Source: Allolobophora icterica
Lineage: Eukaryota; Annelida; Clitellata; Crassiclitellata; Lumbricidae
Assembly: GCA_963556255.1 (NCBI GenBank)
Contig: OY744604.1
Coordinates: 73,667,130 to 73,731,129, forward strand
DNA: 64,000 nucleotides
Direction of reading: 5' to 3'
The translations under genes were made by a program, and so were the position numbers. Below the pieces are notes generated by a model. The model made no database searches, was not told where the DNA came from, and was given only the letters and a program-made list of their open reading frames with translations. Positions 3,026 to 62,381 of this stretch are shown here, in pieces; the stretch's first letter is position 1; each line of letters starts with the position of its first letter.

Positions 3026-4816
3026 AGAACTTTGACGGTTGGTTTGTACTGGGCTGAGATAGCTCGTGCACTTGCTGATCCTTTGATTCTGCCACTTAAT
3101 GCTTCAACGTACTCATAGATGACTACCAACAGCGTCTCGCTCGATTATCAGTGTTCTGAGAAGTTTCAAAAATAATTAAGGACTACGGTGTGGAAAGTTT
3201 AGCCTTAAAACGAAATGGTTCTAATTAATTCCTTCGTGTTTCATGATGAAGTTTAGTTCGGGGTGCTCGGTAGTCTTGTGGTTAGCGCGCTGGACTGTCA
3301 ATCGAGAGGTCGGGTGTTCAAATCCCCGCCAGGGCAGAAATTAGGTTCGAGATTTCTGTTCCACTTGCACCCCCTAGCCAACTCAGCTATGATGAACACA
3401 CTGACCGTACACTGTCAGAGGGAAGATGAGCCGGCGAGAGAGAGGACTGGCCACCCGCCGTAATATGCCGAGGCTAAGTAAATGAAGTCGCTAACACTTC
3501 ATACCCATGGCTGCCTCAGGGCTAGCTTAAGGGACTGCTCTTCTTCTTCTTCTTCTTCTTCTTCTTCTTCTAACTATTAAGTACATTAGCAACTGTTGCT
3601 GTAGAGTAATCGCAAATAGGCCCAATGAGAAATCGTTTATATTTGGCTCCTCTCTTTGTTTTCTCGAATTAGTAGTGATAGACAGACCGCACTTTAAATT
3701 TCAATCTGCTTTCACAGATGGTCTGTATGATGCCGGCAGAAACTTCGAATTCGCGACTTATTCGTTCATGTGACCAGGCAAAAGTAAGTATGATATTTGA
3801 CCTTATTAGACAGACCATTGCTACTGGTATAGCTATGTCAGAGGTTGAGCAACTGAGAACAACCGATTACTAATTACTTTATTTAGCCAACTGGTATAAT
3901 ACTAATTCCGTATTTAATGACAGATTGCTCTTAGATTTGTTTAATAAAATGAAAATTAGATTAAATAAACAGTGACAATCATTACTGCCTGATAAGTTAT
4001 AAAATCATCAAAACGTGTATTTCATAAGCTAACTGTATACAGCTATTTGCTTTCGATGTTATGAAGATATCCCTCGGGTCGTGTTTAAATTGAATATTCC
4101 TAATATTCAGTTGTCAGTCCCATTGAAATGCGTATGTACAATGATCAACTGATGCGACTTGAGAGAGCTTTCATCAGCTTCGACGGTCTACCACTCAGAC
4201 CGATGACAAAGTAAGTTGTAATCTCTATTCATGATCCACTTCAACTCAAATCATGTCCAACAGTGACCTATTCAGTTTTATAGAGTCCCGTTTGCAGTCG
4301 TTTGCAGCTTATAATGAGCAAAAAATTCACATACAATGACCTCATTTTACCACACCGAAATGTACATCCTCAACAATTCTCTCATATCCCAATTACATGT
4401 TGCTCATTCCCAGCGTTAGTTCATACTCACAGCTAAATTTTCTTACAGTGATTCTTCGCAAATATGCACTTAGAATTACAATTATTGAGCTACAGTAAAA
4501 TGGCTTAATATAATGTAACTACTGATGGCAAGACTAAATATTACAAACCTTATGGCTAACGTGTTTTGAAAGACAAGTTGATTTAAATATTGATTTTTTT
4601 TAAACTTTCAGACACGTCCTGTTTGCACCCAGTTCGTTTGATACGTAGGCCTACGCTGGTGGTGAGACAGTTCCTGGTCTTGTGGATTTGATGTATGGAA
4701 TTGAGAAACTTGACGGTGAGAAGAAAATTAAACAGTGGGAAAGAGTAAAGGAACACCTTGCTACGATCACCTTTTGCATAGATTCGGCAACTTTTGGGTT
4801 AAAGCCGTGGACATGA
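3026..4816 (+). pseudogene. Glutamate carboxypeptidase II-like (M28B, PSMA/NAALADase) 3' exons, copy A
   Basis: Three exons of the C-terminal helical (dimerisation) part of the family are recognisable. Positions 3,026-3,143 read LYWAEIARALADPLILP but end in a TAG, and the donor and about 60 bp are lost. Positions 4,111-4,210 are intact and read RMYNDQLMRLERAFI, close to the conserved family motif RM.NDQLM.LERAFI. Positions 4,612-4,816 encode HVLFAPSS, then GLVDLMYGIEKL, and end at TGA. Phases fit (phase 1, then phase 2). The last exon carries an in-frame TAG created by the octamer TAGGCCTA at 4,646. Without those extra six bases it would read DTYAGGETVPG, matching the family's YAGESFPG region. 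The catalytic zinc-binding exons are absent, so this is a non-functional 3' fragment. Family assignment rests on recalled motifs. Confidence 0.8.
3260..3571 (+). mobile_element. tRNA-derived SINE, copy A only
   Basis: The 5' part is tRNA-like, with an A-box-like TAGTCTTGTGGTTAGCGCG and a B-box-like GTTCAAATCC. It is followed by a unique body (GGAAGATGAG, GAGGACTGGCCACCCGCC) and a TTC-rich tail. Copy B has the uninterrupted site near 38,475, so the SINE inserted after the duplication. Related copies are at 17,645, 28,718 and 51,380. Confidence 0.85.
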
Positions 4817-4826
4817 TTCGACTAAC

Positions 4827-5100
4827 TCATGAAAACATTTTGTTAGCCAGGCATTGTTTCACAATTGTTGACCAGTTCTCATTTATATTATCTATCCAGC
4901 TTAGTCTTGGTCTGCCTTTGTTTTTTTCCTTTCGAATCTTTTGCATGTGTGAGATTCGGTCAACTTGCATTCTCTCTACATGTCCAAACCATATGAGCCT
5001 TCTTGGGATTACATTGTCTAGCAGAGTTGTTTGGTTTACGCAGACATGTGTATTCTCGTGTTTATTTTGAATGTAGGTGCCTTCCTCGAATTTCAAACAG
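4827..5100 (-). mobile_element. Non-LTR retrotransposon fragment (reverse transcriptase C-terminus)
   Basis: The minus-strand frame contains RRLIWFGHVERM followed by KNKGRPRLSWIDNI. This is the RR...WFGHV.RM...GRPR..W.D signature at the C-terminal end of many LINE-encoded reverse transcriptases. It is a 5'-truncated relic just downstream of the carboxypeptidase stop codon. Copy B has the same relic near 39,800-40,080, so it predates the duplication. Confidence 0.7.
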
Positions 5101-5365
5101 CTTCTTGTCCTTCCACTATCTGGACTCATGCAGTTTCGCGATCTGGTAAACGGATGGGCCCGAACCCTGTTCGATGAATGTATCAATGAGCCATAACCAC
5201 GCAATGATTGTTTCTGCTGTAACTCGGGTGTTCATTGATTAGGCTTTATCTCTGACGTAATCTTTTCCTAATATATATTTTGCAATTAGCCCGAATCCGG
5301 ACTGAGTTTTATGCGTTATGTTCGATTCATACCCTCAATGCATTGTATGTATCGCTAACCAAACG

Positions 5366-5510
5366 TTGGGCCGTTTTAAGGTCATGGTAGGCCCTAGGCA
5401 CTCTTGGAATCGTAGGCCCCAACTCAACTTCCAACTCTGCATTAAAGCTAAACGCATTCACATTAGCTTAACTTAAACTGTTTCAGTACAAAAATTTATT
5501 GTATTATCTA
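5366..5510. mobile_element. hAT-type MITE remnant (GGGCCGTTTTAAGG family), one end
   Basis: The left end TTGGGCCGTTTTAAGG matches full copies at 13,483-13,766 and 40,302-40,793. The right end, present in copy B, has been deleted here. Confidence 0.5.
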
Positions 5511-6031: not shown

Positions 6032-8593
6032 TTATTTGCTGACCAGATCAGCATCTGCGATTCTGCGGTCGATAGTTCTCACCTCCTCGATATTCAGATA
6101 CGTGATCTGCGGTTCATCGAAGTCGTCGCTGCAAAATGTCTCTCTATTCTGATCGGGTGTAACTATTTCTTCTTCTCTCTGTTGTCCCAAGGCATCAGTT
6201 GGATCGACAGTGTAGTGCATAGATGAGTCTTCCTTAAAGTCTTTCATCCTTATCGCACTGAAGGTAACTTCTACCAAAGACATAGCAGGAGTAGACATAA
6301 TTATCTGCCTTGAGTAGTGGAATTTATGTGAGAGTGATTGAATGATTGATTGATTGATTGCTCCTTAAGGTGCAGTGACTTAGCTTAAATCGGTCATCAA
6401 ACATATACGCACTGAAGACGTGTCTGATCCATTTTATGACCTTGAGATAATGAAGGTGCGTCGAAGGTCAAGTTGAATATTCAAACGCATTTGACATCTA
6501 CTAAGTAAAATTGTTTGTCAAGGTGATTAAGAAAAAAGTGAACGAATATGATTCATACCCTGGATCGCACTGCTACGTCTTGATCGGCATTTGTCACGGA
6601 TGATCAGTGCTATCACAACGAGAAGACTCAGACCCAATAGAAATGTAAGTCCTAGTATCAGCAGCGCGGAAATGTCAGGACCTAAAGCTACAATCAATAT
6701 TAACGAAACGAATGCATAGCCTAAGTAGTCAGAATTCAAACATTCAAATATTCAGTATTTAAAATATCAAAAATCTATTCAAATACATTCACCAGAAAAA
6801 TGTATCAATATTACTTTAAATGCAAGCCAATAAACAAGTATTAACGCTGGCATAAAATACCGTCTCGTAATTTACGGTGCATGCGCGTAAAATAACATTG
6901 GTCAGGTTATGAGATCCTCTTCATGATAAGAAACATTCACAAAATGGAGCCTGATCATTTGAAGCTGATGCAGTTAGGATTAGATTGTTCAATTCAACGC
7001 ACCCTTAGAGATAACGTCGAGAATATCTTCGTTTACATCAATTGTAGTAGAATTGATTCCGAGCGTCGATGCCAAAGTAGGTTTGTAAGTTGGTGTCGAT
7101 GATGTTGTTTCTTTGCGAGTTCCTGTTGATGTCAGAGTCTGTTCGTGGCTTCTTGTCCTCGACAGTGTCTGTGTTATTAATTCTGAAACTTACATGAAGA
7201 ATTGTTGTTTAACCCTCGAATGCCCAAGGGAGGGGTCCGACCGGACCCAAACCCGCTTTTCCACGGATAACTTTAGAACGGCATCGAAATTGTAGCAATT
7301 GATTCAGGAAATCCTAAACCTATCAATTTGACTTAGTATGATATATTTTGCGTGATTATTCTCCCACGCTGATGGTCATACTCGATCATGGTTTACCAGC
7401 CCACAAATAAATTTTTCAACGCATGTTATTAGGCATCGTTTTAACGGCGAATTCATCTACTGTAGTGTCTGTTTCCTATTCGAAGTTATACAGCCCAAAA
7501 CTACACGCGTACAATTGAATACCTGTGAAAATCCCGAAAATTCAAAACAATACAAACGAGTATTAAAGTTCAAATAAGGTTTCACCAGGCGGCGCTACTG
7601 TGAAATACCATATATCAGTCGATTGCAAATTCAATTTGGATTATAACAAGCCAAATCCCATTAAAATACCACAATGAAAACACTGGGGTTCGGTCAGACC
7701 CCCCCCCGTTGGGCATTCGTGTTCCCAAAAATAGCTTGGGCATTCGAGGGTTAATTTGCCCAACAATTAAGGCGCAAAATAAGCCAAATGGCCCTATTTT
7801 CAAGGAAAGAGGAAGGTCATCATCATTTTCATCATTATCGTCATCGTTGTCGTCATCTTTCCTTCGGCCTTGGCTGGCCTACGGCGCTATACAAATCGTC
7901 TTTTTATAAATGTTATCGTCATCATCGTGGTAGTCATTTTTATCATCGACATTATAATCATCATTATCCATCACCATTATTATTATTATCATCATCATCG
8001 TATTCATCATTATCATCGTTATCATCGCATTGTCATGACTGAAATCGTCTTGGGCGCATCTCCAGGCTGTGTAGTAGCCTAAAATTGTCGAGGCAATCTC
8101 GATTGTATTCTCCGCAAGTGCAAGTCCTTCTCTGCCTGAGACGGCCCTACCTCTTTAGCTAAACAAAATTGGAGTGTAGGCCTATGCCTTTTACTTTAAC
8201 ATTTATCGCGATGTGGCATTTTTTACCAAGAATTATAAAATTAGACTTGGAAAGATACAAAATAAAAGACATACAGAGAAACTAAAATGGCGTTAAAATA
8301 TTTTGAATTCAGGCAATCTTCTCAAAACTCTCTCATGTCTGCTCTTCGTCCACTCTGTCTCGCTGAATCCAGTAGTTTTAATCCTTTAAGGACGGTATTT
8401 ACAACGTCAAATAAATGTAACGGTATTCAATGCAATAACAGAGAACAGTCAGATGAATAACGTAGGTGTATAACTGGACAACAAAAACAAATAACTTTGG
8501 TAGATATTTACCGACTCCACTGGGTTGAAGTTCGACCGAAACCACCGCCAAAACCACGAAGAAGGCTCGATATAGCCAGAAAGAATACATCAT
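6032..8593 (-). CDS. R1: signal peptide-stalk-TM receptor with ITIM-like tail
   Basis: Four exons on the minus strand join into an open 209-residue frame: 8,593-8,512 (signal peptide), 7,182-7,003 (stalk), 6,687-6,559 (transmembrane) and 6,270-6,032 (tail). All introns are GT-AG and phase 1. Residues 1-23 are a hydrophobic signal starting MMYSFWLYRA. Residues 28-87 are rich in Ser/Thr and probably an O-glycosylated stalk. Residues about 95-117 form a Leu/Ile-rich membrane helix, followed by the basic RDKCRSRRSS. The 79-residue tail contains HYTVDP and ITYLNI. The latter fits the ITIM pattern [SIVL]xYxx[IVL]. I recognise no folded ectodomain. A piggyBac-type MITE (7,213-7,750) sits in intron 1. 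The protein is probably a single-pass surface receptor or ligand; its function is unknown. R1' (41,414) is the duplicate. Confidence 0.75.
7213..7750. mobile_element. piggyBac-like MITE in R1 intron 1, TTAA flanked
   Basis: The element starts CCCTCGAATGCCCAAG and ends with the inverse CTTGGGCATTCGAGGG. It is flanked by TTAA at 7,209-7,212 and 7,751-7,754. The same intron of R1' shows the intact single TTAA site at about 43,092, so this insertion is specific to copy A. It carries C-runs and no transposase. A longer relative lies at 62,386-63,977. Confidence 0.9.
7815..8036. repeat. ATC/ATT trinucleotide microsatellite
   Basis: Imperfect TCATC/ATTATC tracts in intron 1 of R1, homologous to 1-205 and 43,160-43,405. 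Open frames across it, rich in H or I/S, are artefacts. Confidence 0.85.
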
Positions 8594-9294
8594 CGTTTTG
8601 ATAAATTATTGATTTCCTGCTGGTTGTATTGTCCGCTAAGTATGCTTCCTTTAAAGCGCAAGTGTAAAATTTACTAACTAGTGTTGACACCCGCTTAGAT
8701 TGTGAAAGAAATGCGATGCATCATAGTATATAAGCTGGCACTGTACAACGGAACAAGCTACCCCGCAAGATAGGGAAAATGCATTGTCATTCACTTGAGC
8801 GTAGGTTAATAGTTTGAAGCCTTACTGTGAGAGTTTGTCCTTGGTAGCTAGATAGTATAGTGTAGCCTATGGGCCTATACCAGGATTGCTGAATGCACGC
8901 AGCGTCTAATTGCACACCACTATCTATGAATAATTTTTTCTTTACCTACGCTATTAAAATTAATGGCAAAACCAACTAGATGATTTAACAGTGTAACTAT
9001 TCCACAACACATATTTTATTTTTTACAAAAATAGTCACACAAATAGGCCCTAAACATAATTATACAAGCAGATTAGGATAGATAATAGCAGCGCCGGCCT
9101 TAGGATATTTTTGGCCCCGTGCAGAGTATAGTGTACTGGCCCCATGGCACACGTCGAATTGTTTTTCTCTGTTAATCATTTTTATTGATCTTGCAATAAA
9201 AAATAAATTACATAAACATGGAATGATAGATTTACTGTTAACAGCAAATTTTGCCAAACATACGTACAACGTCGTACATTATACAATACATGAC

Positions 9295-9297
<3 letters not shown>

Positions 9298-9371: not shown

Positions 9372-9374
<3 letters not shown>

Positions 9375-9803: not shown

Positions 9804-9805
<2 letters not shown>

Positions 9806-9885: not shown

Positions 9886-10822
9886 ATATATGTGTAAAAT
9901 AATAAACCATAACAAATAAATGCCTTGAAAATGTAAAAGGAGAAAATAATAAAATATAGTAAATAGAAGTACCATATATACTCGCGCACAAGTCCACTTT
10001 GCGTATTAGTCGACCACTAAATTTTCGACCTTGGAAATGGAAAAAGTATACGACTCGCGAATAAGTCGATGCGTGCTTTTATGTATAGACAGTAAATCTG
10101 AACATTTCATGGCTCTTTTAACCACCAACTAAACCTAAAAGAAATTATCTGCCAGAATTACGAACATGTGCTTCTGTCATATTCGAGTCATCTAAGAAAT
10201 TATCCCTCACTAATTAAAAAGCTTCTGTTTATATAACCCTTAAAATTATTTCTGTATTTTCAACTAGAGGCCAACAGCATAAATTAAAACAATTGACACT
10301 ACCGAGATATACTTACTGTAATTGGCAGCTCATTGATTTCATTTTTAAAATCATTTCGGAAGTTCTCGTCACGAGAATTCTGGGATATAGAGGACGTTCA
10401 AATATCAGAGCGCTAATATATTTTGAAACAAACTGAACTGCTGGTACCATTTGACTTTTATTTCTCGACAAAAGAGAAGTTGTAATCGAAACCATAATGT
10501 TATTATTAACGTTTCCTGTTCATGTTCATTGTTCATGTTTTCTGTGACATTTTCGGGCCCGCTAAGTTGCGGACCTAGTGCGACACGGTTCGCACGCCAT
10601 ACTAAGGCCGGCACTGATAACACATGCCTCCTTTTATTCTAATCGTAACAAATTATGTGTCGTAACATAATTTGTATGTCCTTTTTTCGATTTCAACCAT
10701 TTATCTACTGATTTTGACATGGTACCGAGATGAATATCTATGCACAACACTGAACAGGAATACCACTTGGTTTGCCAAACAGCGGCCCATGCAGCGTCCG
10801 GCTCACAATGGGCGCAACTGTA

Positions 10823-12003
10823 GGGGAGACCGGGGCTATATGTTACAATTCCGACTTTTTTGTAAATTGGCTGTTCCTCAGCACCTGAGTTTTCCTAAGA
10901 CCAAGGGGGTTTAGTACTTCATTATGTTACACACAGATTGGTCACAGTAGATTTTGTTAATAGTTAATGAATTTTGTGCAATATTGGTGTTAGGCAAGCT
11001 ACTGGAATGTAACAAATAACCCCGATAAAGGGGTTACATGTTACATTCCCCGGGGTTGCAATGTTACACAGGTAGAATTGACATTTTTACAGTAAATGTA
11101 AAGTGATTATTAAACAGGAACATCACTAAAAATACAAAAGATTATTCAGAACTGATTAGGCCTATGTAACGTCTGAAGTTCTTCAACAGTTGATGAAATA
11201 TAAACGACGAAAAATAAACTGAACTACTAGTTAAATCAGAAATCAGTTAAATGGGTCTACTTAAGCTTAGGCCTAGTCAGAGTCATAACAGTTGTGGCAT
11301 ACATAATAATCGTTTCCATCAGTGCAATTGTCGTGTACCCATTCACCACATTCTAGGCATTGTACCCAGTCCTCATCGAACGATTCGCCGCAAACCAGGC
11401 AAACCGTTTTCTTAGATTTATTATAATTGTCGCTGTTTTTCGTAACTGAACTCTTTTTGCGGCTTTTCGGAGCAGATTATTCAAACATTAACCTAGTGCC
11501 CGTTGCAGTTACACGGTAGCCTACAGCTTATTCTTAATGACATAGAAATCAAGACTTACTGGCCTACATAGGCCAATAAGTCAATAGCACAAGTTAATAA
11601 TGCGGGGCTATATGTTACAAATGTAACATATAGCCCCCTAGGCACATCTTCGTAAACAACAAGCTTTTACACATACAACGGTCAAGCTACATCGCTAGTA
11701 ATATTCTGTTTATAAACACATATCACCATGCCACCAACACGCAGAATATGACAACCGAAGTACTAAAACTGGCCGCAGAAATAACAAAAGTGCGCACTTA
11801 CCTTTGAAAAAGATATCTGCTCAAAAAACGTTTATTTGCCCTAAATTGATCACGCTGTCAAATATATCAACAGCTCCGCCATTATACCTGCAGGCCAACT
11901 GTGTGCATGTGCTAGAACATAGATATACACTACAAATAAGTAAACACCATAGATATATCGATATAACATATAACCCCCTGTAACATATAGCCCCGGTCTC
12001 CCC
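10823..12003 (-). mobile_element. pogo-like (Tc1/mariner superfamily) element with TA target duplication
   Basis: Terminal inverted repeats of about 25 bp begin GGGGAGACCGGGGCTATATG and end with the inverse at 12,003. They are flanked by TA at 10,821-10,822 and 12,004-12,005. Homologous sequence without the element is visible near 2,340 and 45,725, so it inserted in copy A. It encodes only the last part of a transposase (11,273-11,476). Short GGGGTTACATGTTACA-like repeats near 11,030-11,070 echo the ends. The superfamily call rests on the TA duplication and the C-terminal finger. Confidence 0.8.
11273..11476 (-). pseudogene. pogo-type transposase C-terminal PHD-like zinc finger, remnant
   Basis: The open stretch from after a stop at 11,477 down to TAG at 11,273-11,275 begins SAPKSRKKSS. 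It contains CLVCGESFDEDWVQCLECGEW (split here as CxxC, DEDWVQC, LEC, EWVH), then NC, YVCHNC and DSD. The CxxC-x-WxxCxxCxxWxHxxC-x-CxxC spacing is the finger that often ends DDE transposases of pogo-like elements in marine animals. The DNA-binding and catalytic parts are missing, so it is not functional. Confidence 0.65.
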
Positions 12004-13482
12004 TATATTAAAACTGCCTAACCTACACTAATACCAACAGCAATTGCCACATATTATTCAGAAGTGGTATCTGACATAAAATATTTCGCATCATTGTAAT
12101 GAAGAGAACAGACTGTTGGCGAAAGCGATTTACATTAGAACAAGATGCCAGAAGAGAAACCAGAATTTGATGCATGTATAAGCATTAGTCAGTAACCGCA
12201 AATACAAACACAATTACATGAATTAGGCTGCTTCCGTTATCTTATTTTAGGACGTCGTTTTTCGTTTTAATTAATTGTCACCATGTTAGAATCACAGTTC
12301 AACTTCGATAAGCAATTCATCGTACGCAGCTCTGAAGTACTTCCAGGTCTACAAATCAAATGCACGCCGTTGTCGTGGCATGCTCGGGGTGTCAATATGT
12401 GGCAGAGTTGTCTTGTCTCTGATAAAATAAATGTAGTATAATGACAAAATGACGTACAAATGCGAAGCAAGAAAAACACAACACCAACGCCGCTGAATTC
12501 CACCGAAGCATCAGCAAATAACCTAATTTCTATTAGATACATTTTGGACGAAACAGAAACCAACAGTGAACGAAGATGGCTTACAAGTGCTCTTTCAATT
12601 ACTAAAGTCATTTCCGAGTGACTGACTAAATGTTTAGGCCTATTCTGCTTAGCGGAAGTTTGGTATTGGCAATCAAGGAAATTGCTCTGTGCGGCAGAGA
12701 AAAGTGATTGAACATAATTGGACATTTTTACAATTAGGCCGAACAAACTGAACAGTTACGTTTGATTTCAAACCGAACTCGAGTCTTCTGTAAAGATTTG
12801 ACACACCGCAATCACTATAGCAGTGTAGATTCAACTGAAAGAATCAGTAAGCTGTTAGGATTTTCTTACGAGTGGTTCAATTTAGAATAGCCGCTAGTTA
12901 AATAAATCAACACCATTTGGATTAGAAGAGTTGTAATTTCTGACAAGTTAGATCCGTCTTCAGTCCCACAAACAGTTTATTTCCTCGAGTAGGCACTAAT
13001 AAAAAAATTCTCCCAAAGATTGCAATGTTTACCACGTCTGTCCTCATTCAATAGGGCCTGCCAGATTACTCATTTCATAGTGACTGGCTGTAAATGTTTT
13101 AGTCCTGCTCTGTTTAACGGAAGCTTGACATTTAATAATCTAGCAAATTGCTCTGTGTGGTAGAGAGAAGTGATTGAACATAATTGTACAATTTTAAAAT
13201 TAGGGCGTTTTTTGGGGCAACATAATCTATCCGAATCTAGAGGTTGATAGTGAATGGTCATATGTAAGTCTCAGAAAAGTGTTTCAGTACGTAGGACGCT
13301 ATCCTAGCTACATATAGTATAACTAGTAACTGCCATACTGGCCTGACCTGGGCCCAAGTAGTCTGTAGAGATCCGGGTTGGTTAGTATAAAGTCGGTTAT
13401 ATTTAGTAAAAAGCGAAGGAGGGATAGGACATAGAGAAGATGCTTGCACTTAGACTGACTTAGTTGTTCTCAGGATGCAGTT

Positions 13483-18623: not shown

Positions 18624-21600
18624 TCAACGTCGTCCTCTGGTAACAGTGTTGATTTCGTCAGGAAACTCATAATCAACGTCGTCAGGGCGTTCGTAGTCGT
18701 TTTCACTTATACAGGACTCCCGAGCATTATCGACTCTTCCGGTTTCATTCTTTCTTTCTCCTCTCTCCTCAGTTGGATCGAGTGTGTAATGTTCTGTCGA
18801 TTGACTCTGTGACTCCTGTCTGCGTGTTTTTTTGCCTTAATATGCGAAAAAATGCGAAATTCAGAATAATTCATATCTACAGACTCTGCATCATCTTGAT
18901 TAACATTGCACATGTTCATTGTTCAAGTAGCCCAGATGAAATGCGGCATTGTGTCAAATTGTACCTTAATATTACTTATTGCTATTGTTTCAGAAAAAAA
19001 TATTTTAGCCTATTTAAAAGTTGCTTAACTTCGCCTACTATTATCCTCTAGGCAGTCCGCTAGCTGAATCCTTATCCTACAAAGTGAACTCGATAGGTCC
19101 CTCCTGATTTATCGCATGATATGTTTCAGTTCATTAGTACGTAAGTGGGTGAATGCAATTCGATTCAGTCCTCAGACATGACGGATGAACCTATGGTTTC
19201 GGGTGATGTTACACATTTTAATACACTAACCATGCAATCATGGCGTTCCATGTACAATTGTACAAAGAAAATGAGTTATATCAAATACTGAATACCAACT
19301 TTATAGTTTTAATTTGATATGTTTCTTAAATAAGCTCAACTAAGTAGGCTAGAAAACCTCAATGCTAAGACCATTGATTATATTAATCGCAAGAAATGAT
19401 ATCGAATGTGAAAATGATTCATACCTTTATCCGCTTTGCTTTTTCTTGACCTGCGCTTTAGAACGATGATCAGGGCTACTACAAATAGAAGACTAAGCCC
19501 GAGGAGACCACCAAGAACTAATATCAGAAGAGCGGATACGTTTGGACCTAATGCTACAATCAATAATATGATAATAGTATAGGAAGCATTCTTCCATATA
19601 TACCTTAGAATCCAGAAATTAAGCCACGAGAGGAATAAGATACACGCGACGTTACAGTAGATAGTTATGTATGTGTCAGGACTCAGCAGCACAAAAGGGG
19701 ATTATTAGAATGCTCTACTCTGTAGCTGCCGTTTGAAACTTTTCAAGATCGTGAGCTAAGTTGTAATTAGATATTCCCATATATTTTATTATAACACTGG
19801 CAGAATAGTAGATGTGATAACATTTCTAATAACAATGGTCCAAATGTACCCAATGAGCAGGTTTCTTACATTTCTGAATCCTGCAAATGATTGCTTGGTA
19901 TTTAGTCATGATTTGTATATCGCTGCTCACTTAAGCTTATATGTAGGAAACGCTTCATGAAGGTTGCATACTTCTAAATTTGCAACTCTTGCCACTAGCC
20001 TTCTGAGTTGTTAGAGGAAACGCACCTGTGGCGATATAGCTGAGGATGTCGGTGGCGTCTGGATATTCTGTGACAATTATCAAAGCAGAGGTGGCTTCAG
20101 TTGTTGGTGAAAATGTAGTTCCCATCGTTGTAGTTGCAGGCCTTCTTTTTGTTGCTGATGCACAGACAACTTTAACATACAAAGTTCCAAAGAAATAAAC
20201 GTAACCGTCAACTTTTTTTTAGCAAAACTAGAACAGTGTGTTCATAATGTCTGAAACAGCATGTATCTAGTTGTTAAATGTTTTTGTTTGGGGCAATCTC
20301 ATTGTTATTAGGCCTACAGTGGTAAGTTCGGCGCCTTGTGACCGGAGGGTTGCAGGTTCGAATCCCACTCTAGCCGCTGCGTACGGACCTTGGGCAAGTC
20401 CTTCACGCGCAATTGCTCGTGTCGCTTCGGCGTGAAAATTCCGGCACAGTATCAAATACTGTAGTCGGGAGCGCCTCTGAGTAGTAGTAGACTTCGAGAG
20501 GCGCGACAGAAATATCCGAAATAAATAAACAAATAAATAAAGAACAAAGCGACAGCCATTTCCAACGTTGACAGCTTTCGTTTCCTTTTGATGCGATTAT
20601 GGATTCTTACAAAGAACAGTAACTGTAATCTACCACCATACATAACTTAAGAAAAAGACCCGCTCAAAGAATGTTTCTAAAAACTAATATGTTTGCTCAA
20701 AGCATCCTATCTCCAAAACGTCCGCAATTAGCAGATAGAAAATCATCCACAACGTTAAATTCTCTACTTAGCAAGATTCTTTACTTAGCAAAATTAGTGT
20801 AAATGTTTTTGAATTCATTTGCAGACTAGATACATGTATCTAAAGTGAACTGACAACTGCGAAAATTTTAACACATTTTGTGATTGTAACGGAAACGAAA
20901 TTGCATCTGAATTTATATGGGTCATTTTATTATATTTTCTATTGCGCTGTCAATCTAGAGCACTAAAAGCAATAGGCAATCGTGTCCAGTCTTCACACTT
21001 GGAGCCAAGTGTCACTTATTACTTTCAAATTGGCAGTTATTTAATGTATTGCACATGCATGTAAATCGGCGTTTAACGTTTGAACTCTTACCTCGCTGAA
21101 AACTGTAATAAAATTGAAATCCTTTCCCTGAATGTGAGCCATCTGTACGGAATCTTATAATAGCGAAGTTGCAAGATGCATAAGAAACTGAACGAGTCTC
21201 CCCTAAACGACAGATTTTTCCTGTACTCTCGTTATTTCCTGAACACCGTATCTAAAACATAATTACAGCATTCCATTACAGATGCTATTCTTTTATTCAG
21301 ACCTTACCTAGCATAAAATAATTTGAAGGTTTTGATTTCGTGGAATGCCTTCAGCTTAAGTCTGTTGTCATAATACTAGAGTATTTGCCCATCATATGAC
21401 GGGTGGAAAAAGAAAATGAATGGATTGATAGGAAGTGAAACGAATTTGTTTATTGGAATACTTGATTATAAGTGATATTGGTAATGAAAATTCGAACATC
21501 AGTTAGCAAATGACCTTGACGGTCGGTTTTTTTTATGAGTGCTTTGGTGTTGTTTCGGTCTCGTGAACGAGAAAATGCAACATAAAGCTAGTTATGTGAA

Positions 21601-44930: not shown

Positions 44931-46958
44931 TGCAAAATAATAAACGTTAAAATAAAATCCTTGAAAATGTAAAAGAAAACAATAAGGAGATAATAAATAA
45001 AAGTACCGCATATACTCGCGTACAAGTCCACGTTGCGTATAAGTCGACCACTAAAGTTTCGACCTTCGAAATGGAAACTCGCGAATAAGTCGATGCGTGC
45101 TTTTATGCATAGACTAAATCTGAACATGTTATGACTCTTTTAACCACCAACTAATCGTGAAAGAAATTATCTGCCAGAATCACGAGCCCATCCATCACTA
45201 ATCAAACAGCTGCTACTTATATAACCATTAAAATTACTATAAATTATTTCCGTATTTTTCAACATGAGGCTAAGAGCATAAAATAAAATTGATTTTCACT
45301 ATCGGGTACTTGTACTGCAATCGCCAGCTCATTGTTTTCATTTTAAAATCATGGACGAAGTTCTCGTCACGAGAGTTCTGGCATATAGGCCTATATACAG
45401 GAAGTTAAAATATTGTAGCGCTAATATATTTTGAAACAAACTGAGCTACTGGTACCATTTGACTTTTAATACTTGACAAAAGAGAACGGGTAAAAGAAAC
45501 CATAATATTGTTAACGTGTCCTGTTCTATGTTTTTCTGTGACATTTTCGGGCCCCCTAAGTTGTGGGCCCCGTGCGACCGCACGGTTCGCACGATCCTAA
45601 TATCTACCGATTTTGACATGGTACCGAGATGAAAATCTAAACACAGCACTGGATAGGAATACCACTTGGTTTGCCGAACAGTAGCCTAGGCCTATGCAGC
45701 GTCCGACTCTGAATCAATGCAACAATTAAAATGGCGTAGCCTACACTAATACCGACAGCAATTATTGCCACATTTTCAAAAGTGAATCTCACATAAAATA
45801 TTTCGCATTATTATGATGAAGAGAACAGTTGGATTTGCATTAGAGCAGGATGTCAGAAGAGAAACTAGAATTCGCTATAAGCATCAGTCAGTACCAGCAA
45901 ATACAAACACAATTGCATGAATTAGGCTACTTCCGTTATCTTTTTTACGACGTCGTTTTTCGTTCTAATCAATTGCCAGCATGCTAGAATCACAGTTCAA
46001 CGTCGATAAGCAATTCATCGTTCGCAGCTCTAAAGTATTTCCAGGTCTATAAATCAAATGCATGGCTTTGCCGTGGCATGCTCCGGGTGTCAATATGTGG
46101 CAGAGTTGTCTTGTCTCTGATAAAATAAATGTAGTATAATGACGAAATAACGTACAAATTCGATGCAAGGAAAACACAACGCCAACGCCGCTGAATTCTA
46201 CCGAAGCATCAGCATACAACCTATAGTTTCTATGCGATACATTTTTGACGAGGGCGAACCAATACCGAACGAAGATTGCTTACACATCCTCTTTCAATTA
46301 CTAGATATATATCTCATTTCATAGTGACTGACTGTAAATGCTTAGGCCTATTCTGCTTAGCGGAAGTTTTGGTATTGGAAATCAAACAAATAGCTTTGTG
46401 TGGTAGAGCAAGGGATTAGAACATAATTTATTGTACATTTTCACAATGAGGTTGAATAAAACAAACAGTTCCGTTGATTTGAAACTGAACTCGAGTCTTC
46501 TGTAAAGATTAGAAGCTCTGCAATCACTATCGCAGTGTAGATTCAAACGAAAGAATCAGTAAACTATTATGATCTTCTTACGAGTGGTTCACTTTAGAAT
46601 AGGCGTTACTTAAACAAGGCAGTACCATTATGATTAGAAGAGTTGTAAGTTCTGACAAGCGAGATCCGTCTTCTGTCCCACAAACAGATTATTTCCTCGA
46701 GTAGGCACTATTAATAGTTCGTCCAAAACTTGCAGTGTTTACCACATCTGTCCTCGTTCAATTGGACCTGCTGGATTACTCATTTCATAGTGACTGGCTG
46801 TAAAATTATGTTTAGGCCTGTTCCGTTTAACGGAAGCTTGGCATTGGTAATCTAGTTAATTGCTCTGTGTGGTAGAGCGAAGTGATTGAACATAATTGTA
46901 CAATTTTAAAATTAGGCTGTTTTGCGGGAACATAATCTGTTCGAATCTAGGGGAGATG
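44931..46958. other. Spacer (copy B), no gene seen
   Basis: Pairs with about 9,890-10,820 and 12,006-13,240 in copy A. It contains TACCGCATATACTCGCGTAC, a motif also seen at 9,972. No recognisable coding sequence. Confidence 0.5.
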
Positions 46959-49658: not shown

Positions 49659-50934
49659 CAGCGTTTCCCAAAGTGGGTTCCGCGGAACCCAAGGGTTCCG
49701 CGGGGTGATCCCAGGGGTTCCGCGAAAAGCTGTAATTTAACAGAATTTTCATTGAGAAATTTCATTGGAGTAAAACATTCCAAGCGGTTTTTTTAAATAC
49801 ACAAATAGTTTTATAAAAGTTTAAAACTGCCGTCAGTCGTCTCTTTTGTATGTTAACCCCACTGAGCGAAAATCCGGACTTTCGATGCCCTTTAGCTATC
49901 CAGTAATTATACAGAATTATAGATTGTAGAGGTCACTGCAGGGACCTATGTAGGGCCAGGCCTACATAGGTTAGAGCTGTAGACTTGTGTGAATATGGAC
50001 GTAGCCATCTTTGTTATCGTTACCTCGACGAAACGAATCCGAAAATGATTTTTAAAAGTACAACTGAGTCTGATAATCGTACAGCAGTATTAGCAATTAA
50101 TTTTTTTATTTGCTGGTATGAAAATCTGACATGGAGCGTTGGCTCAAGGATGGAAATTTAAGGGTTCTGAGCCTATGTTCAAACTAGTACTGGTTTGTGG
50201 ACTGTTTTCCAATCTTGTATGAGTTTTTAGTTGAAATGGACTGTTCTCGACCAAAATATTCGTTGAAAAATTGCAGGTCATATTCACGACCTGGAAGCAA
50301 ACTTGGTTAAATACTTTCCTCCCACGAAGGGTGATATTAATTGGATTCGAAACCCATTTAAAGTAGCCGAAAACCAGCAAACCTTTGTAATAAAGGTTAT
50401 GAACTTCTTATTAAGATAACGTCGGACTCGCAAGAACTTTCCGTGGCCAATTAAAGAATACCCCACTGTCGCGAAATGTACAGTTAGTGTGATTCTGCCA
50501 TTTGCAATAACGCATTTGTGCGAAGCCGAAATCTCATAGTAGGCTATACTGCAACAAAAACCAAATATAGAAATTGACTAAATGCTGCACCTGTCATAAG
50601 AATTCAGCTTTCTAGCATTAGGCCTAAACCAAATATAAAAAATTGGCACGAGAAAAAACAAAATCACTGTACACATATTAAAACTTCATGTAGGCCTAGG
50701 CCAATATTGTGCTCCATAAGTCTTGGTCTTAAAAACTGTACACTTTAACATTTGACATAAGAGAATATAAATTGTTTTACAAACTCCTTATATGGGTGTA
50801 TGTTTAGTTAGGCTTATATTAGTATGCTTCTCATGTGCTACGTATGCCTCAATACGCTTAGTTCAGGTTGGGGTTCCGCCATGATTTTAAAAGGTGACAA
50901 GGGTTCCGTGGCCGAAAAAGTTTGGGAAACGCTG
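49659..50934 (+). mobile_element. hAT element with ZBED-type transposase relic
   Basis: Starts CAGCGTTTCCCAAAGTGGG and ends AGTTTGGGAAACGCTG, flanked by CCTTATTG (49,651-49,658) and CCTTATGG (50,935-50,942). GGTTCCGCGG repeats lie inside both ends, typical of one hAT lineage. Copy A lacks it near 15,350. It contains a broken transposase C-terminal fragment. Confidence 0.88.
50273..50539 (+). pseudogene. hAT (ZBED-like) transposase C-terminal fragment
   Basis: Reads AGHIHDLEANLVKYFPP, INWIRNPFKVAENQQTF, then after a frameshift FPWPIKEYPTVAKC and VILPFAITHLCEAEIS, before TAG at 50,537. The last part is the hAT dimerisation region, where relatives have EYP.L...AL..LLPFATTYLCE.GFS. The catalytic and BED-finger parts are not identifiable. 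Confidence 0.6.
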
Positions 50935-54839: not shown

Positions 54840-57800
54840 TCAGCGTCGTCCTCTGGTAACAGTGTTGATTTCGCGAGCATTCTCATAATCAACGTCAGGG
54901 AGTACACCATCAGGATTCTCATAATCAACGTCGTCAGGGATTTCATAGTCGTTTTCACTTATACAGGACTCCCGAACAGTATCGACTCTTCCGGTTTCAT
55001 TCTTTCTTTCTCCTCTCTCCTCAGTTGGATCGAGTGTGTAATGTTCTGTCGATTGACTCTGTGACTCCTGTCTGCGTGTTTTTTTGCCTTAATATGCGAA
55101 AAAATGCGAAATTTAGAATAATTCATATCTACAGACTCTGCATCATCGTGATAAACATTGTACATGTTCATTGTTCAAGTAGCCCAGATGAAATGCGGCA
55201 TTGTATTAAATTGTATCTTAATATTACGTACTGGTAAAGATTCGGTAAAATTATTTGGCCTATTTAATAGTTATTACTCACAGTGAATCCGTCATATTGC
55301 TTAACTTCGTCCACTATTATCCTCTCGGCAGTCCGCTAGCTGAATACTTATCCTACAGAGTCAACTCGGTGGGTCCATCCTGATTTATCACATGATATGT
55401 TTCAGTCCATTAGTACATAAGTAGTTGAATGCAATTCGATCGAGTTTTTATACATGACGGATGAACCTATGGTTTCGGTTTATGCTATACTTTTTAGTAC
55501 GGTACTATAGCCATGCAATAATAGCGTTCCTTGTAGGCCTACATTAATAACAAAGCAAATGTATAATTTGAAATGCTGAAAACCAGCTTTTATTTTTGCT
55601 TGATGTGTTTTTAAATACGCTCAACGAAGTAGGCTAGAAAAACTTAAGTCTAAGAGCATTGACAATATTAATCCTAAGAAATGATGTCGAATGTGAAAAC
55701 GATTCATACCTTTATCCGCCTTGCTTCTTCTTGACCTGCGCTTTAGGATGATGAGCAGGGCTACTACAAATAGAAGACTAAGCCCGAGGACACCACCAAG
55801 AACTAATATCAGAAGAGCGGATACGTTTGGACCTAAAGCTACAATCAATAATATGATAATATTATGCGAAGCATTCTTCCATATATACCTTAGAATGCAG
55901 AAATTGAGCCACGAGAGGAATAAGATACACGCGACGTTACAGTAGATAGTTATGTATGTGTCAGGACTCAGCAGCATAAAAGGGGATTATTAGAATGCTC
56001 TACTCTGTAGCTGCCGTTTGAAACTTTTCACGATCGTGAGCTGAGTTGTAATTGGATATTCCCATAAATTTTATTATAACATTGGCAGAATAGTAGATGT
56101 GATAACATTTCTAATAGCAATGGTCCAAATGTACCCAATGAGCAGGTTTCTTACATTTCTGAATCCTGCAAATGATTGCTTGGTATTTAGTCATGATTTG
56201 TATATCGCTGCTCACTCATGAAGGTTGCATACTTCTTTTGCAACTCTTGCCACTAGCCTTCTGAGTTGTCAAAGGAAACGCACCTGTGGCGACATAGCTG
56301 AGGATGTCGGTGGCGTCTGGATCTTCTGTGACAATTATCGAAGCAGAGGTGGTTTCAGTTGTTGGTGAATGTGTAGTTCTCATCGTTGTAGTTGTAGGCA
56401 TTCTTTTTGTTGTTGATGCACAGACAACTTTAACATACAAAGTTCCAAAGAAATAAACGTAATCGTCAACTTTTGTTAGCAAAACTAGAGCAATGTGTTC
56501 CTAAGTCTGAAACAGCACTGGTCTAGTCGTTAAATATTTTTGTATAGGCCTACAGTGATCTTAAAGTTATTATTGACTAAAGAGCAAAACGATAACCATT
56601 TCCAACGTTGACAGCTTGCGTTTTCCTTTCGCAACATGCATCGGTTGATTCGATTATCGAATCTTATAAAAAAAACAGTAAGTATAATCTACCACTAAGA
56701 ATAAAGCCCAACTAAAGAATGTTACTAAAAAACTAATAGGCCTTTTTTCGATAGAAGCATCCTATCTCCAAAAGGTCCGCAATTAGCAGATAGAAAATCA
56801 TCTACAACTTTACATTCTCTACTAAGCTTATTCTTTACTTAAAAAATTAGTCTAAATGTTTTTGAACTAATTTGCCGACTAGATACATGTATATAAAGTG
56901 AACTGACGACTGCGAAAATCTTAACAGAGAATATTTTGCGATTGTAACGAAAATGAAGTTGCATCTGAATTTATCTGGGTCGTTTTAATATATTTTCCAT
57001 TGCGCTGTCAATCTAGAGCACTAAAAGCAATAGGCAATCGTGTCCAGTCTTCTAACTAGGAGCCAAGTGTCACTTATTACTTTCAAATTGGCAGTAATTT
57101 AATGTATTGCACATGCATGTAAATCGGCGTTTAAAGTTTGAACTCTTACCTCGCTGAAAACTGTAATAAAATTGAAATCCTTTCCCTGAATTGGAGCCAT
57201 CTGTACGGAATCTTATAATAGCGTGGTTGCAAGACGCATAAGAAACTGAACGAGTCTCCCCTAAACGACAGATTTTTCCTGTGCTCTCGTTGTTTCCTGA
57301 GCACCGTATCTAAAACATAATTACAGCATTCCATGACAGATGCTATTCTTTCATTCTGACCTTACTTAGCATAAAATAATTTTGAAGGTTTTGATTTCGT
57401 GGAAAGCATTCAGCTTAGTCTGTTGTCGTAATACTAGAGTATTTGCCCATCATATGACGGGTGGAAAAAGAAAATGAATGGAATGATAGGAAGTGACAAG
57501 AATTTGTTTATTGGAATGCTTGAATATGATGACATTGCTGATGACAATCGGGCATCATTTAGCAAGTGACCTCGACGGTTGGTTTTTTGATGAGTGCTTG
57601 ATTTTGTCTCTGTCTCTTGAACGCGAAAATGCAGCATAAAGCTGGCTATGTGAAAATACGGGTTCGGTAAAAAAAGGTCCTACGTGGTCGAAGGTTTGTC
57701 CTTGCGACTTTACTAGCTTTTATTATTGGGACTGTCAGGCTTGGTGAGCAGCGCCTATGTGCAGAATCAGTAGGGAGCATCAGTAGGCAGCATTAGTAGG

Positions 57801-59984: not shown

Positions 59985-61075
59985 AGATGTCAAATTATTT
60001 GTATTTCTCTGTAAGATAAACCCGGCTAAGCTACATACAACAATTGCTAAGCTACAAGGTAACATGAGCAGCATATGAAATTTAATATGATTTCGTTTTG
60101 ATCACCCTAATAGCGTGGCTTCGTATTAATTCAGGATGTAAGGTTATGCCTAGTTTTCAGAAATGAATCCTGCTTGGCTGCAATTATTGAGTCCCACCAA
60201 GACAAACACAGCTTAACTGATAAAATAACCACGTGATATCTTTCAGGAGATGATATATCACATTACAACCACAGCTTGTTTACTCAGTGTTCAAGTACGT
60301 TTCAGAGCAAATACACAAGACACAAGACTGGTTTTGTGTGTTTTATACAAAAAACGTTCACTATAAAACAATTGCAATGTTGAGTTTCCAGCCAACGTAA
60401 CAATGACTACATGTTACTCTGTTGGTTATATAGTCACTACCTCGTTTGAAGCATCTCGCACAAGGCTGGCTACGTCAATCTATATCGTTTAAAATTTGAT
60501 TAAGGACAAAATCATAAGATGACAGTGTTTAAGTAACTAGCAGGGTCACCACAGCAGCTCCCGCAAACAAGTATAGCACAGCCAACGGAAATCCTTCATG
60601 AGTAAGATGACATTTGAAACAATATTCAGAGTGTCAGGAATAATAGAACACATCAATTGTTAGCTCTGGAATGTCTCTTCTTCATCGGGATTGAGGAACG
60701 ACTAGAGTCGAGGAAGTCCGCAACGCAGTGTTACCTCACCGCCTAGTAGTCATTTGTAGACGCAAAAGACGAAACGTCCGGATATCTCGCGAGCCACCAT
60801 TTCTATGCAGGACAGACATTCGTCAAAAGCCGCGAGAGTGGTCGTAGAAACCATTCGTGATTAACCCTCATTCCAAAATCTCCCTTACATGTCCTTCAAG
60901 GGACCAAAAATTTCCCATTTACAGTCGACACACTGACATTCTAATGTTCGGGTGGTAACTTGCAAGCCAATCCTAGGTGGACCAACTACATACAACCAAC
61001 CACCATCCAAAACAGATTCAAGAAAATGTTTTGAAACGCACATTCTGTCCCAGTAGAAGTTTGAACTATCGAATT
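59985..61075. other. Spacer (copy B), no gene seen
   Basis: Pairs with 26,540-28,120 of copy A. Nothing recognisable is encoded. Confidence 0.5.
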
Positions 61076-61077
61076 TA

Positions 61078-61420
61078 AGAAACAAGGGGAGACAGTTCCA
61101 AGCCGAGGGACCCACTTAGACGAAGCTCATGGATAGTGCCGTGGAAGAGCGCATACGAGGGACTGCTATAAGGCCGCGGGTCGAGTATCGCAAGGAAGCC
61201 CTCGCAGGCAAGGAAGAAACCGGGGTGCAAAATTCATTAGGGAAGACGAAGCAGACCCCGTGAGGCGGTTGCGTTGAGGGTCAGGGTTTTAAACTGAATT
61301 CTCTGTTGGACACGGAGCAAGTGGAGGGGATCACGAGTAAAGGCGGAAATGTGGGCACACTTAGGAATATCACATATAAGCCATACAACAGCATTAAGAA
61401 TAGTCTGGAGTTTGTGCATA
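61078..61420 (-). mobile_element. CR1/L2-type LINE 3' fragment, copy B only
   Basis: The minus strand reads RDPLHLLRVQQRIQFKTLTL and, further along, GPSAWNCLPLF, the same C-terminal motifs as the LINE at 9,372-9,803. Copy A runs through this point (about 28,145) without it. It lacks an obvious short-repeat tail, and its outer limits are uncertain (up to 61,560). Confidence 0.7.
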
Positions 61421-62381
61421 TTGGAGGAGGAAAGGTAAATGTAGGCCTACACAGAATTGCCAAAGTCCACCCAAGTGCAGATCAAAGCGTGGACCAATGT
61501 AGTGAGAGCTTGAAGTGAAAGATACTTGCTGATGGATCTAAGCTCGCGTAGATGATAAAATTAAGATCGGGATACAACGTTAACTAAATGTAGAAGTTTC
61601 GTTCTATTTTGCCACAAAATGTCTCATTATCTCTATCAACAAGCTACCAATAGCGATTCGTTAATGCACCTCCATGAATATAATGAGTTCTACAATAGTT
61701 CCTAACTTTCTGCAATTATTTTCGGTTTTAAAAGGTTGTTAAATGTCACCGTGTATTAACATTTGAACGTCCTATTAATAACGGCCATCGTTTTCGCAAA
61801 CATGTGCAGAATTAGTATTCTTACAATTGCAAGTTTTTACATAGATTTACCTAAACTTAATTTGATGAACGTATTTACAACAGTTTTCCATATTTATTGG
61901 TGTTCATATTTTAATAATTCTTCTTCTTTTGCGAATGTAGTAGTTTCGTTCTTTTGTGCCAGAACGTGCCTATCATATTTTTGCACGCACCATTACTCGC
62001 GATTCGATTAAAACACCTCTTTGAATTTAACGAATTCTACACTAGTCCCTAAATTGCTCACGGGATTATCGGTTTTAAAGGGTGTTAAATGTCATCGTGC
62101 ATGAAAAATTTGCACGTCTTACACAGATATGGCCATTGGCCAAGCGCAAAGTGCATTAGCAAATGTCTACGAAACCATTTCAATACAACAGGAAACGAAC
62201 ATAAATGAACCCAATTACTCAACGTTTTTGTAACTGAACGCCCTTTACGAGGCTTATTTTCTGTGCAAAAATATATCTTTTGTTCTTCTAAGCCCCTGTT
62301 CTACTTACTAAAACTTAGATTAACGTAACGTTTAACATGAAGCAACATTAGGTCTTACACTCTACAAAATTGCACACTATA
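61421..62381. other. Spacer (copy B), no gene seen
   Basis: From about 61,765 it pairs with 28,165-28,715 of copy A. The 82-codon frame at 61,763 is not open in copy A. Confidence 0.5.

What the first reader, a model, noticed from the sequence alone, without database searches (positions are those of the whole stretch)
4646..61449. TAGGCCTA palindrome scattered as apparent TA-targeted micro-insertions
I found the exact octamer at 25 places by eye (e.g. 1,282; 2,302; 4,646; 8,177; 11,157; 23,271; 31,541; 39,397; 42,204; 45,386; 50,691; 55,534; 56,545; 61,442). In DNA this AT-rich, base composition predicts about one or fewer. Duplicate pairs show it arriving: GTATTAACGC (6,839) against GTATTAGGCCTAACC (42,202); AAATATGC (4,461) against AAATAGGCCTAAGC (39,394); TGTACAA (19,250) against TGTAGGCCTACA (55,533); TGTATACGG (35,240) against TGTATAGGCCTACAG (56,542); AGTATTATGCC against AGTGTAGGCCTATGCC (8,174). 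Each is consistent with GGCC inserted at a TA with the TA duplicated. It also occurs inside transposons, so the process outlived them. I know of no described mechanism for this. One idea is an excision footprint of a TA-targeting element ending GG...CC, such as the pogo-like element at 10,823 (GGGG...CCCC, TA flanks).
Basis: partly seen in the sequence, partly recalled or inferred. Interest (0 to 1): 0.9.

Follow-up and report, generated by a model that had tools for sequence, protein, structure and literature searches.

The report
Transposon scars at TA sites
An eight-letter palindrome scattered through this genome (probably an animal's) appears to be a small scar inserted at TA sites, most likely left when cut-and-paste "jumping genes" left those spots, and it is so common that it could serve as a mileage counter of past jumping.

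Summary
TAGGCCTA occurs exactly 25 times in the window (shuffle mean 0.54) and 273,201 times in the 1.118-Gb assembly, against 7,459 for the reversed word. Tandem paralogues show it arriving as an insertion: 9 of 12 window sites with an in-window paralogue face a gap of at least 4 bp, against 3.5% of comparable 8-mers. Several are clean TA to TAGGCCTA differences (+6 bp); four sites are polarised as insertions. The sites share a direction of target preference (purine-TA-pyrimidine) with a pogo-like element that begins TA-GGGG. Pogo-type transposase genes are numerous: 145 of the 150 best DDE_1 matches have no stop inside the match. TAGGGCCTA is 30-fold over its control; the double form TAGGGCCCTA is not enriched. 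I read the motif as an excision scar of pogo-type transposons: TA, GG from one end, CC from the other, TA. Insertion at TA is near certain. The pogo part is supported but unproven: no site was found with an element in one copy and the scar in another, and scars outnumber the perfect element ends counted by about a thousand to one.

The parts
1282..1289 (.). TAGGCCTA site
   Evidence: no paralogue
2302..2309 (.). TAGGCCTA site; copies at 10783 (CGGCCCA) and 45682 (TAGCCTAGGCCTA) differ, complex
4646..4653 (.). TAGGCCTA site, complex difference
8177..8184 (.). TAGGCCTA site; absent in copies at 344 and 43692 (net +5/6), polarised insertion
11157..11164 (.). TAGGCCTA site inside the pogo-like element; inherited, present in all 4 other copies compared
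11268..11275 (.). TAGGCCTA site inside the pogo-like element; inherited, present in all 4 other copies compared
12635..12642 (.). TAGGCCTA site, shared with 46343
20309..20316 (.). TAGGCCTA at the 5' junction of a SINE-like insertion; may be coincidental
23271..23278 (.). TAGGCCTA site; +10 bp against the copy at 59343
23452..23459 (.). TAGGCCTA site within a hAT-like insertion
23494..23501 (.). TAGGCCTA site older than a nested hAT-like element whose 8-bp duplication GCCTACGC overlaps it
23823..23830 (.). TAGGCCTA site inside the nested hAT-like element (may be inherited with it)
24082..24089 (.). TAGGCCTA site inside the nested hAT-like element (may be inherited with it)
25805..25812 (.). 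TAGGCCTA site
31541..31548 (.). TAGGCCTA site; clean +6 bp against L018 (GTAGTACATAG)
39397..39404 (.). TAGGCCTA site; clean +6 bp against 4463; a third copy (L020) carries the motif nearby, so direction unclear
42204..42211 (.). TAGGCCTA site; clean +6 bp against 6842; a third copy (L020) has TAGCCTA nearby, so direction unclear
45386..45393 (.). TAGGCCTA site; about +10 bp against two other copies, polarised insertion
45687..45694 (.). TAGGCCTA site within TAGCCTAGGCCTA, looks like a double scar
46343..46350 (.). TAGGCCTA site, shared with 12635
50619..50626 (.). TAGGCCTA site
50691..50698 (.). TAGGCCTA site within TAGGCCTAGGCCAA, looks like a double scar
55534..55541 (.). TAGGCCTA site; clean +6 bp against 19253
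56545..56552 (.). TAGGCCTA site; +6 bp, absent in three other copies (35244, near 20300, L017): polarised insertion
61442..61449 (.). TAGGCCTA site; clean +6 bp against L019 (AATGTACACAG)
9044..9052 (.). TAGGCCCTA variant; +7 bp insertion TA[GGCCC]TA against its paralogue
10821..12006 (.). pogo-like non-autonomous element with its flanking TAs: TA-GGGGAGACCGGGGC...GCCCCGGTCTCCCC-TA; carries a PHD-like finger
11276..11476 (-). PHD-like finger coding stretch (E 5.9e-5, 23.4 bits, just under the Pfam cut-off of 24)
2342..2346 (.). approximate empty site matching the pogo-like insertion in a paralogous copy (reads TCTA); no scar there

Best explanation
TAGGCCTA is the excision scar (footprint) of pogo-type Tc1/mariner transposons whose ends are 5'-GG(G)...(C)CC-3'. 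The element inserts at a TA and duplicates it: TA-GG...CC-TA. On leaving, the transposase cuts two nucleotides inside each 5' end, so GG stays on each flank as a 3' overhang. Repair joins the flanks as TA-GG-CC-TA, a net gain of 6 bp over the empty site. An occasional extra G/C on one side gives TAGGGCCTA/TAGGCCCTA, and loss of one nucleotide gives TAGGCTA/TAGCCTA. Each jump leaves one scar while element number need not grow, so scars can accumulate far beyond the number of elements. SHOWN: the enrichment; the +6 insertion at TA; the target preference; the presence of elements with matching ends, one family with intact transposase frames; the one-sided variant spectrum. INFERRED: that these elements made the scars; the 2-nt cut (by analogy with ISY100, PMC2170065); the repair step.
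For: 25 in the window against 0.54 expected. 273,201 genome-wide against 7,459 for the control word. 9 of 12 sites with an in-window paralogue face a gap of at least 4 bp, against 3.5% of 9,223 (overlapping) 4-G/C 8-mers (binomial P 1.8e-11, taking sites as independent) and 13 of 276 other TANNNNTA words. Clean +6 at 39397, 42204, 55534, 31541, 61442 and L020:4051; 56545 is +6 with one substitution. Absent in two or three other copies at 56545, L020:4051, 8177 and 45386. Base before the TA: G .38, C .08 at TAGGCCTA (158 half-sites) and G .64, C .04 at the GGGGAGACC element (55 half-sites), against G .19, C .17 at all TA (P 7.7e-10 and 2.7e-16). A member of the family in a (CATA)n array keeps the array's phase only if one TA was duplicated (L030). 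210 perfect TA-plus-terminus 16-mers for that family and 125 for a second, larger one, control 0 in both. A third family appears to begin TA-GGG (left end inferred). 145 of the 150 best-scoring DDE_1 matches (of 381 candidates) have no stop inside the match, several sets with identical scores; two copies of the GGGGAGACC element are 98.6% identical. In 224 kb the extra base in TAGGNCCTA is C 9, G 9, T 1, A 0, as expected from a G-run end. [quoted passage not shown]
Against: No locus was found with an element in one copy and TAGGCCTA at the same TA in another; the paralogous empty sites of the window's element show no scar. About 340,000 words of the two main kinds stand against 335 perfect termini of the two families counted; some of the words are copies carried by repeats, as the pair inside the element shows. 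TA on both sides of the 20 element pairs fetched is no independent evidence, since the search word contained the TA. The element's preference for G before TA is stronger than at the scars (P 0.0099), and only one family was measured. TAGGGCCCTA (729, control 1,508) and TAGGCGCCTA (444, control 423) are not enriched, which rejects independent variation of overhang length at the two ends (about 3,900 expected) and forces an added one-sided step. TAGGTA/TACCTA are not enriched (15 against 24.3). Outside the window only 1 of 6 TAGGCCTA sites with a copy is clean (L020:4051); L015:9886 differs without a gap (73.6% identity), the rest are complex. Of 10 TAGGCCCTA/TAGGGCCTA sites with a copy, only 2 (window 2427, 9044) face a gap of 4 bp or more. 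At 39397 and 42204 a third copy carries the motif or TAGCCTA nearby, so precise loss is possible there. Laboratory pogo/Tc1 footprints are described as a range of lengths (PMC9976928, PMC7913693), not one dominant form.
Confidence: 0.7

Rival explanations
1. Direct micro-insertion: a transposase or repair pathway writes GGCC plus a TA copy at TA sites without a full element ever having been there (abortive transposition, or joining of two nicked transposon ends).
For: Words outnumber the perfect element termini counted by about a thousand to one. Sites cluster at short range: 6 of the first 99 spacings on C1 within 50 bp against 0.7 expected. No filled/scar pair was found.
Against: No such reaction is known to me. 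The end nucleotides and the direction of target preference match existing elements, which ordinary excision explains. Clustering can also come from local hopping, target preference or repeats.
Confidence: 0.16
2. Footprints of a different TA-targeting family with GG...CC ends (another Tc1/mariner lineage) rather than the pogo families found.
For: A DDE_3 mariner/IS630-like fragment is present (L013). The target preference of the one measured family is not identical to that of the scars.
Against: A scan of 224 kb for TA-flanked inverted repeats (14-bp arms, at most 2 mismatches, 60-5000 bp apart) gave no other GG...CC element except the hAT-like one. No TAGG-starting 12-mer other than those containing the motif recurred in more than two loci. 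The pogo families whose ends I read begin with GGG, the third by inference.
Confidence: 0.11
3. A selected sequence motif (a protein-binding palindrome kept by selection, as HIP1 is sometimes viewed in cyanobacteria; recalled).
For: Exact palindrome; one-mismatch neighbours are only weakly enriched (86 against 59 expected).
Against: It mostly differs between window paralogues by indels at TA, not by substitutions. It occurs inside transposons. The TAGGGCCTA companion is 30-fold enriched.
Confidence: 0.02
4. An ancestral sequence that is lost by deletion between the two TA repeats.
For: Third copies at 39397 and 42204 carry the motif or TAGCCTA nearby. Deletion between 2-bp repeats is easy.
Against: Four sites are polarised the other way by two or three other copies. 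It does not explain why the word exists.
Confidence: 0.01

Closest known systems
Excision footprints of Tc1/mariner/IS630 elements (Tc1, Sleeping Beauty, ZB)
   Same: TA target duplicated; a few end nucleotides remain between two TAs. 2-4 bp is quoted for Tc1/mariner and 0-3 bp found for ZB (PMC7913693, passages). The Tc1 scar TACATGTA is recalled.
   Different: Here one scar type dominates and has accumulated to hundreds of thousands of copies in one genome; end nucleotides are GG/CC.
Passer, pogo superfamily
   Same: pogo-type transposase, TA duplication, footprints of 0-4 bp (PMC9976928, section 19 and passages).
   Different: Passer footprints were read in an assay from donor plasmids; here they are inferred from a genome. 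Passer's terminal sequence was not compared here.
ISY100
   Different: Bacterial; its terminal sequence was not compared here.
HIP1 palindrome of cyanobacteria (recalled)
   Same: An over-represented octamer palindrome genome-wide.
   Different: TAGGCCTA differs between copies by insertion at TA, and a candidate source element exists.

Membership tests
Tc1/mariner-pogo excision footprint | Insertion relative to the empty site with duplicated TA | tested here: met
   Clean +6 cases; 9 of 12 window sites gapped against 3.5%
Tc1/mariner-pogo excision footprint | Left-over bases equal the terminal bases of an element in the genome | tested here: met
   GG/CC match TA-GGGGAGACC and TA-GGGGGAAGTG termini; TA-GGGCAAAG is an inferred left end
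Tc1/mariner-pogo excision footprint | Target preference like that of the element | tested here: inconclusive
   Same direction at -1 and -3 and off background, but weaker at the scars (P 0.0099; one family measured)
Tc1/mariner-pogo excision footprint | Filled and scarred alleles of the same site | tested here: inconclusive
   None found in the few copies compared; no population data
Tc1/mariner-pogo excision footprint | Excision by the transposase gives this scar | not testable with these tools
   Needs a bench assay
pogo superfamily (window element 10821-12006) | TA target duplication and terminal inverted repeats | tested here: met
   Inverted repeats and TA flanks; empty copies (the one at 2342 reads TCTA, so one substitution must be assumed); array phase around L030
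pogo superfamily (window element 10821-12006) | DDE_1 transposase | tested here: inconclusive
   The window copy carries only a PHD-like finger, just under the Pfam cut-off. The longer copy L030 has a stretch that looks like a pogo DNA-binding domain to my eye but has no Pfam match. The larger family with similar G-run ends has DDE_1.
selected palindrome (HIP1-like) | Differences between copies by substitution, no insertion bias | tested here: not met

The most novel reading that the evidence does not exclude
The scars are not ordinary excision footprints: pogo-type transposases of this genome write GGCC at TA sites directly and often, without a full element having been there, so that a transposase acts as a mutator with one fixed product. 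This would explain the thousand-fold excess over element ends, the short-range clustering and the absence of the double-sided variants.
Probability: 0.13. Interest if true: 0.92.

Novelty: new variant of a known kind. Interest (0 to 1): 0.77.

Why it matters
If right, one footprint type is the most over-represented 8-mer outside simple repeats in the 224 kb sampled, with over 300,000 copies and about 2 Mb of added DNA in the assembly. Footprints are usually treated as rare and varied (recalled). Here they would be a countable record of past jumps, a transposition odometer that does not depend on element copy number, marking which places were visited. The spectrum (GGCC, GGGCC and GGCCC, but not GGGCCC) would also be a large natural data set on how a cell repairs transposon breaks. 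Eight searches of an open-access library listed no report of such a motif; the lists were capped.

Tried and rejected
Independent 2- or 3-nt overhangs at both ends were rejected by TAGGGCCCTA for GGG ends and TAGGCGCCTA for GGC ends. The long-inverted-repeat element at 51925-54459 was first taken as a second TA-GG element and rejected: its duplication is 8 bp (TTCACCAT), so it is hAT-like. The ACCCTC elements at 7210, 62383 and 15467 do not have GG ends, and TAACGTTA, the scar they might leave, is not enriched (1 against 1.3). A telomere-fusion origin was considered and dropped because the flanking base is not fixed. The Tc1-type word TACATGTA is 22 against 6.2, but several cases sit in simple repeats; not pursued. 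The sites inside the window's element were first counted as later insertions; one search shows they are inherited, and the odds were lowered slightly (0.72 to 0.70) for this and because TA flanks of fetched elements are built into the search word. Species identification failed: a protein search gave no names. The genome-wide microsatellite test (CATACATANNNNTACATACATA) and the TAGGGGCCTA count did not complete.

Rows dropped before counts: blast matches under 150 bp or under 100 bp; window-against-window rows. In one search each position is scored against its best-scoring paralogue only. In one search only distinct 25-base flanks were kept (55). Of the 210 and 125 termini, only the first 100 places of each were listed.

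Full report
THE OBSERVATION. Among palindromic 8-mers seen at least three times it has the highest ratio under order-1, -2 and -3 models. It is not local: 16 other 10-kb stretches, at the 10-Mb mark of 16 contigs, hold 40 in 160 kb, and the whole assembly (1,117,693,669 bases, 328 contigs) holds 273,201 against 7,459 for the reversed control word. In the 224-kb sample only simple-repeat words scored higher under the order-2 model.

IT ARRIVES AS AN INSERTION AT TA. The window lies in a tandem array with copies mostly about 75-89% identical. Of 25 sites, 12 have a paralogue inside the window by the rule. Nine of these 12 face a gap of 4 bp or more, against 3.5% of 9,223 overlapping 8-mers with four G/C and 13 of 276 other TANNNNTA words (binomial P 1.8e-11, taking sites as independent). 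Two of the 12 are the shared pair 12635/46343, and one (2302) is complex. Clean TA to TAGGCCTA differences of exactly 6 bp are seen at 39397, 42204 and 55534; 56545 is +6 with one substitution. Neighbouring stretches fetched later newly covered two window sites, 31541 and 61442, both clean. 23271 and 45386 are about +10, 8177 a net +5, 4646 and 45687 complex. Outside the window six TAGGCCTA sites have a copy: L020:4051 is clean; L015:9886 differs without a gap at 73.6% identity; L018:1920, L019:1018, L020:4493 and L020:4631 are complex. For the longer variants TAGGCCCTA/TAGGGCCTA, 2 of 10 sites with a copy (window 2427 and 9044) face a gap of 4 bp or more; the other 8 are shared or differ otherwise.

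DIRECTION. At 56545 three other copies lack the insert. At L020:4051, 8177 and 45386 two others lack it. These are insertions by parsimony. At 39397 and 42204 a third, more distant copy carries the motif or TAGCCTA nearby, so loss cannot be excluded there. 55534, 31541, 61442 and 23271 are not polarised.

CHRONOLOGY. Site 23494 overlaps the 8-bp duplication of a nested hAT-like element and so predates it; 23823 and 24082 lie inside that element but may have come with it. The two sites inside the pogo-like element are present at the same places in all 4 other copies compared (2 of them 1,185 bp long, 2 about 1.4 kb), so they are inherited and not later events. In the 224-kb sample one-mismatch neighbours number 86 against 59 expected, against 65 and 2.2 for the exact word; under simple decay this suggests an average age of some 5% substitution per site, a rough inference.

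THE VARIANT SPECTRUM. In 224 kb, words TA-G(a)C(b)-TA occur as follows (observed against order-1 expectation): (2,2) 65 against 2.1; (2,3) and (3,2) 9 each against about 0.4; (2,4)+(4,2) 3 against about 0.16; (2,5)+(5,2) 2 against 0.03 or less; (1,2) and its complement 22 each against about 11; (1,1) 43 against 55; (3,3) 0. The extra base in TAGGNCCTA is C 9, G 9, T 1, A 0; six of the 18 G/C cases belong to two sets of related copies (contexts). Genome-wide, TAGGGCCTA in both orientations is 65,378 against 2,168, but TAGGGCCCTA is 729 against 1,508 and TAGGCGCCTA 444 against 423. Independent variation of the two ends would give about 3,900 of one of these, so it is rejected. The added base comes from a G run and is added on one side only. 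My inference is one-sided slippage of the repair polymerase while copying a GG overhang across the break.

THE SOURCE. The window holds one element with TA-GG...CC-TA ends, at 10821-12006: GGGGAGACCGGGGC inverted repeats, empty copies near 2342 and 45725, and a PHD-like finger just under the Pfam cut-off. Its TA-plus-terminus 16-mer occurs 210 times in the assembly and its reversal never. Among the 100 places listed many pair at 1,185 bp and other lengths, down to a 63-bp element. TA on both sides of the fetched elements is built into the search word; better evidence of duplication is the member in a (CATA)n array, whose phase is kept only if one TA was duplicated. Two copies are 98.6% identical. 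The base before the TA is G in 64% of 55 element half-sites and 38% of 158 TAGGCCTA half-sites, background 19%; C is depleted in both and A is raised at -3 in both; the difference in strength at -1 has P 0.0099. A search for the pogo transposase domain (PF03184) scored the 150 best of 381 candidates; 145 of 150 have no stop inside the match and several groups share identical scores. One family (1147-aa frame) begins TA-GGGGGAAGTGGGGC; that word occurs 125 times, reversal never, and in the listed places many pairs 4-5 kb apart enclose a DDE_1 match. Another (911-aa frame) appears to begin TA-GGGCAAAGTGAC, judged from repeats near its left end only. Both carry a C-terminal finger.

HOW IT WORKS. 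In this superfamily the transposase cuts at the 3' ends and a few bases inside the 5' ends; two for ISY100 (PMC2170065, passages). Passer, a pogo element, leaves 0-4 bp (PMC9976928, section 19), and 2-4 bp is quoted for Tc1/mariner (PMC7913693, passages). With ends GG...CC and a two-base stagger the expected scar is TA-GG-CC-TA. Because each cut-and-paste move leaves one scar without adding an element, scars can outnumber elements; a thousand active elements each leaving once per thousand generations would need a few hundred thousand generations. That figure is arithmetic, not measurement.

WHAT IS MISSING. No site was seen filled in one copy and scarred in another. The words exceed the perfect termini counted by about a thousand to one; other families and diverged ends were not counted, and some words are copies spread by repeats. 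I hold insertion at TA as near certain, the pogo excision reading at about 0.70, and direct micro-insertion as the main rival.

LITERATURE. Eight library searches were answered; one more was rejected for its wording. None of the capped listings showed a paper on TAGGCCTA as a genome-wide scar; 182 papers hold the letters, of which 20 were listed. Papers seen only in listings are not cited as evidence. For PMC7325037 I saw passages; the main text holds no word beginning GGG and no word 'footprint'.

Noticed in passing
window 1-64000 and L017-L021: Tandem array with units of roughly 36 kb holding CUB-domain exons, continuing on both sides of the window.
   Followed up: partly
51925-54459: hAT-like element with 8-bp duplication TTCACCAT and long inverted repeats, absent from the paralogous copy near 18.2 kb.
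   Followed up: partly
about 23372-24436: hAT-like insertion (8-bp duplication ACGTCTGC) holding a second nested hAT-like element (duplication GCCTACGC) and four TAGGCCTA sites.
   Followed up: partly
7210-7753, 62383-63980, 15467-17370: Elements with ACCCTC inverted repeats flanked by TA; they look like TTAA piggyBac-type elements (recalled resemblance; Pfam gave no match on pieces of the one at 15467).
   Followed up: no
20309-20540: SINE-like insertion whose 5' junction reads TAGGCCTA.
   Followed up: partly
45682 and 50691: Apparent double scars (TAGCCTAGGCCTA, TAGGCCTAGGCCAA); on contig C1 spacings within 50 bp are 6 of the first 99 against 0.7 expected.
   Followed up: partly
L031 (C1:80107822-80107884): A miniature element, 63 bp between the listed ends with their TAs, with perfect GGGGAGACC termini.
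   Followed up: no
L030: 3871-bp member of the GGGGAGACC family inserted in a (CATA)n array; it also carries long frames of unknown kind.
   Followed up: partly
L002: Locus with an integrase and other genes that look like a Polinton/adintovirus-like element.
   Followed up: no
L001-L016 and window: TACATGTA, recalled as the Tc1 scar, is 22 against 6.2 expected in 224 kb, partly from simple repeats.
   Followed up: no
G000:C3:77.97-78.13 Mb: Four copies, 52-56 kb apart, of a GGGGAGACC element: a good place to look for scarred copies.
   Followed up: no
window 11157 and 11268; L022, L024, L026, L029: Every compared copy of the GGGGAGACC element carries the same two TAGGCCTA words 110-111 bp apart, so its progenitor already bore the motif.
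   Followed up: partly
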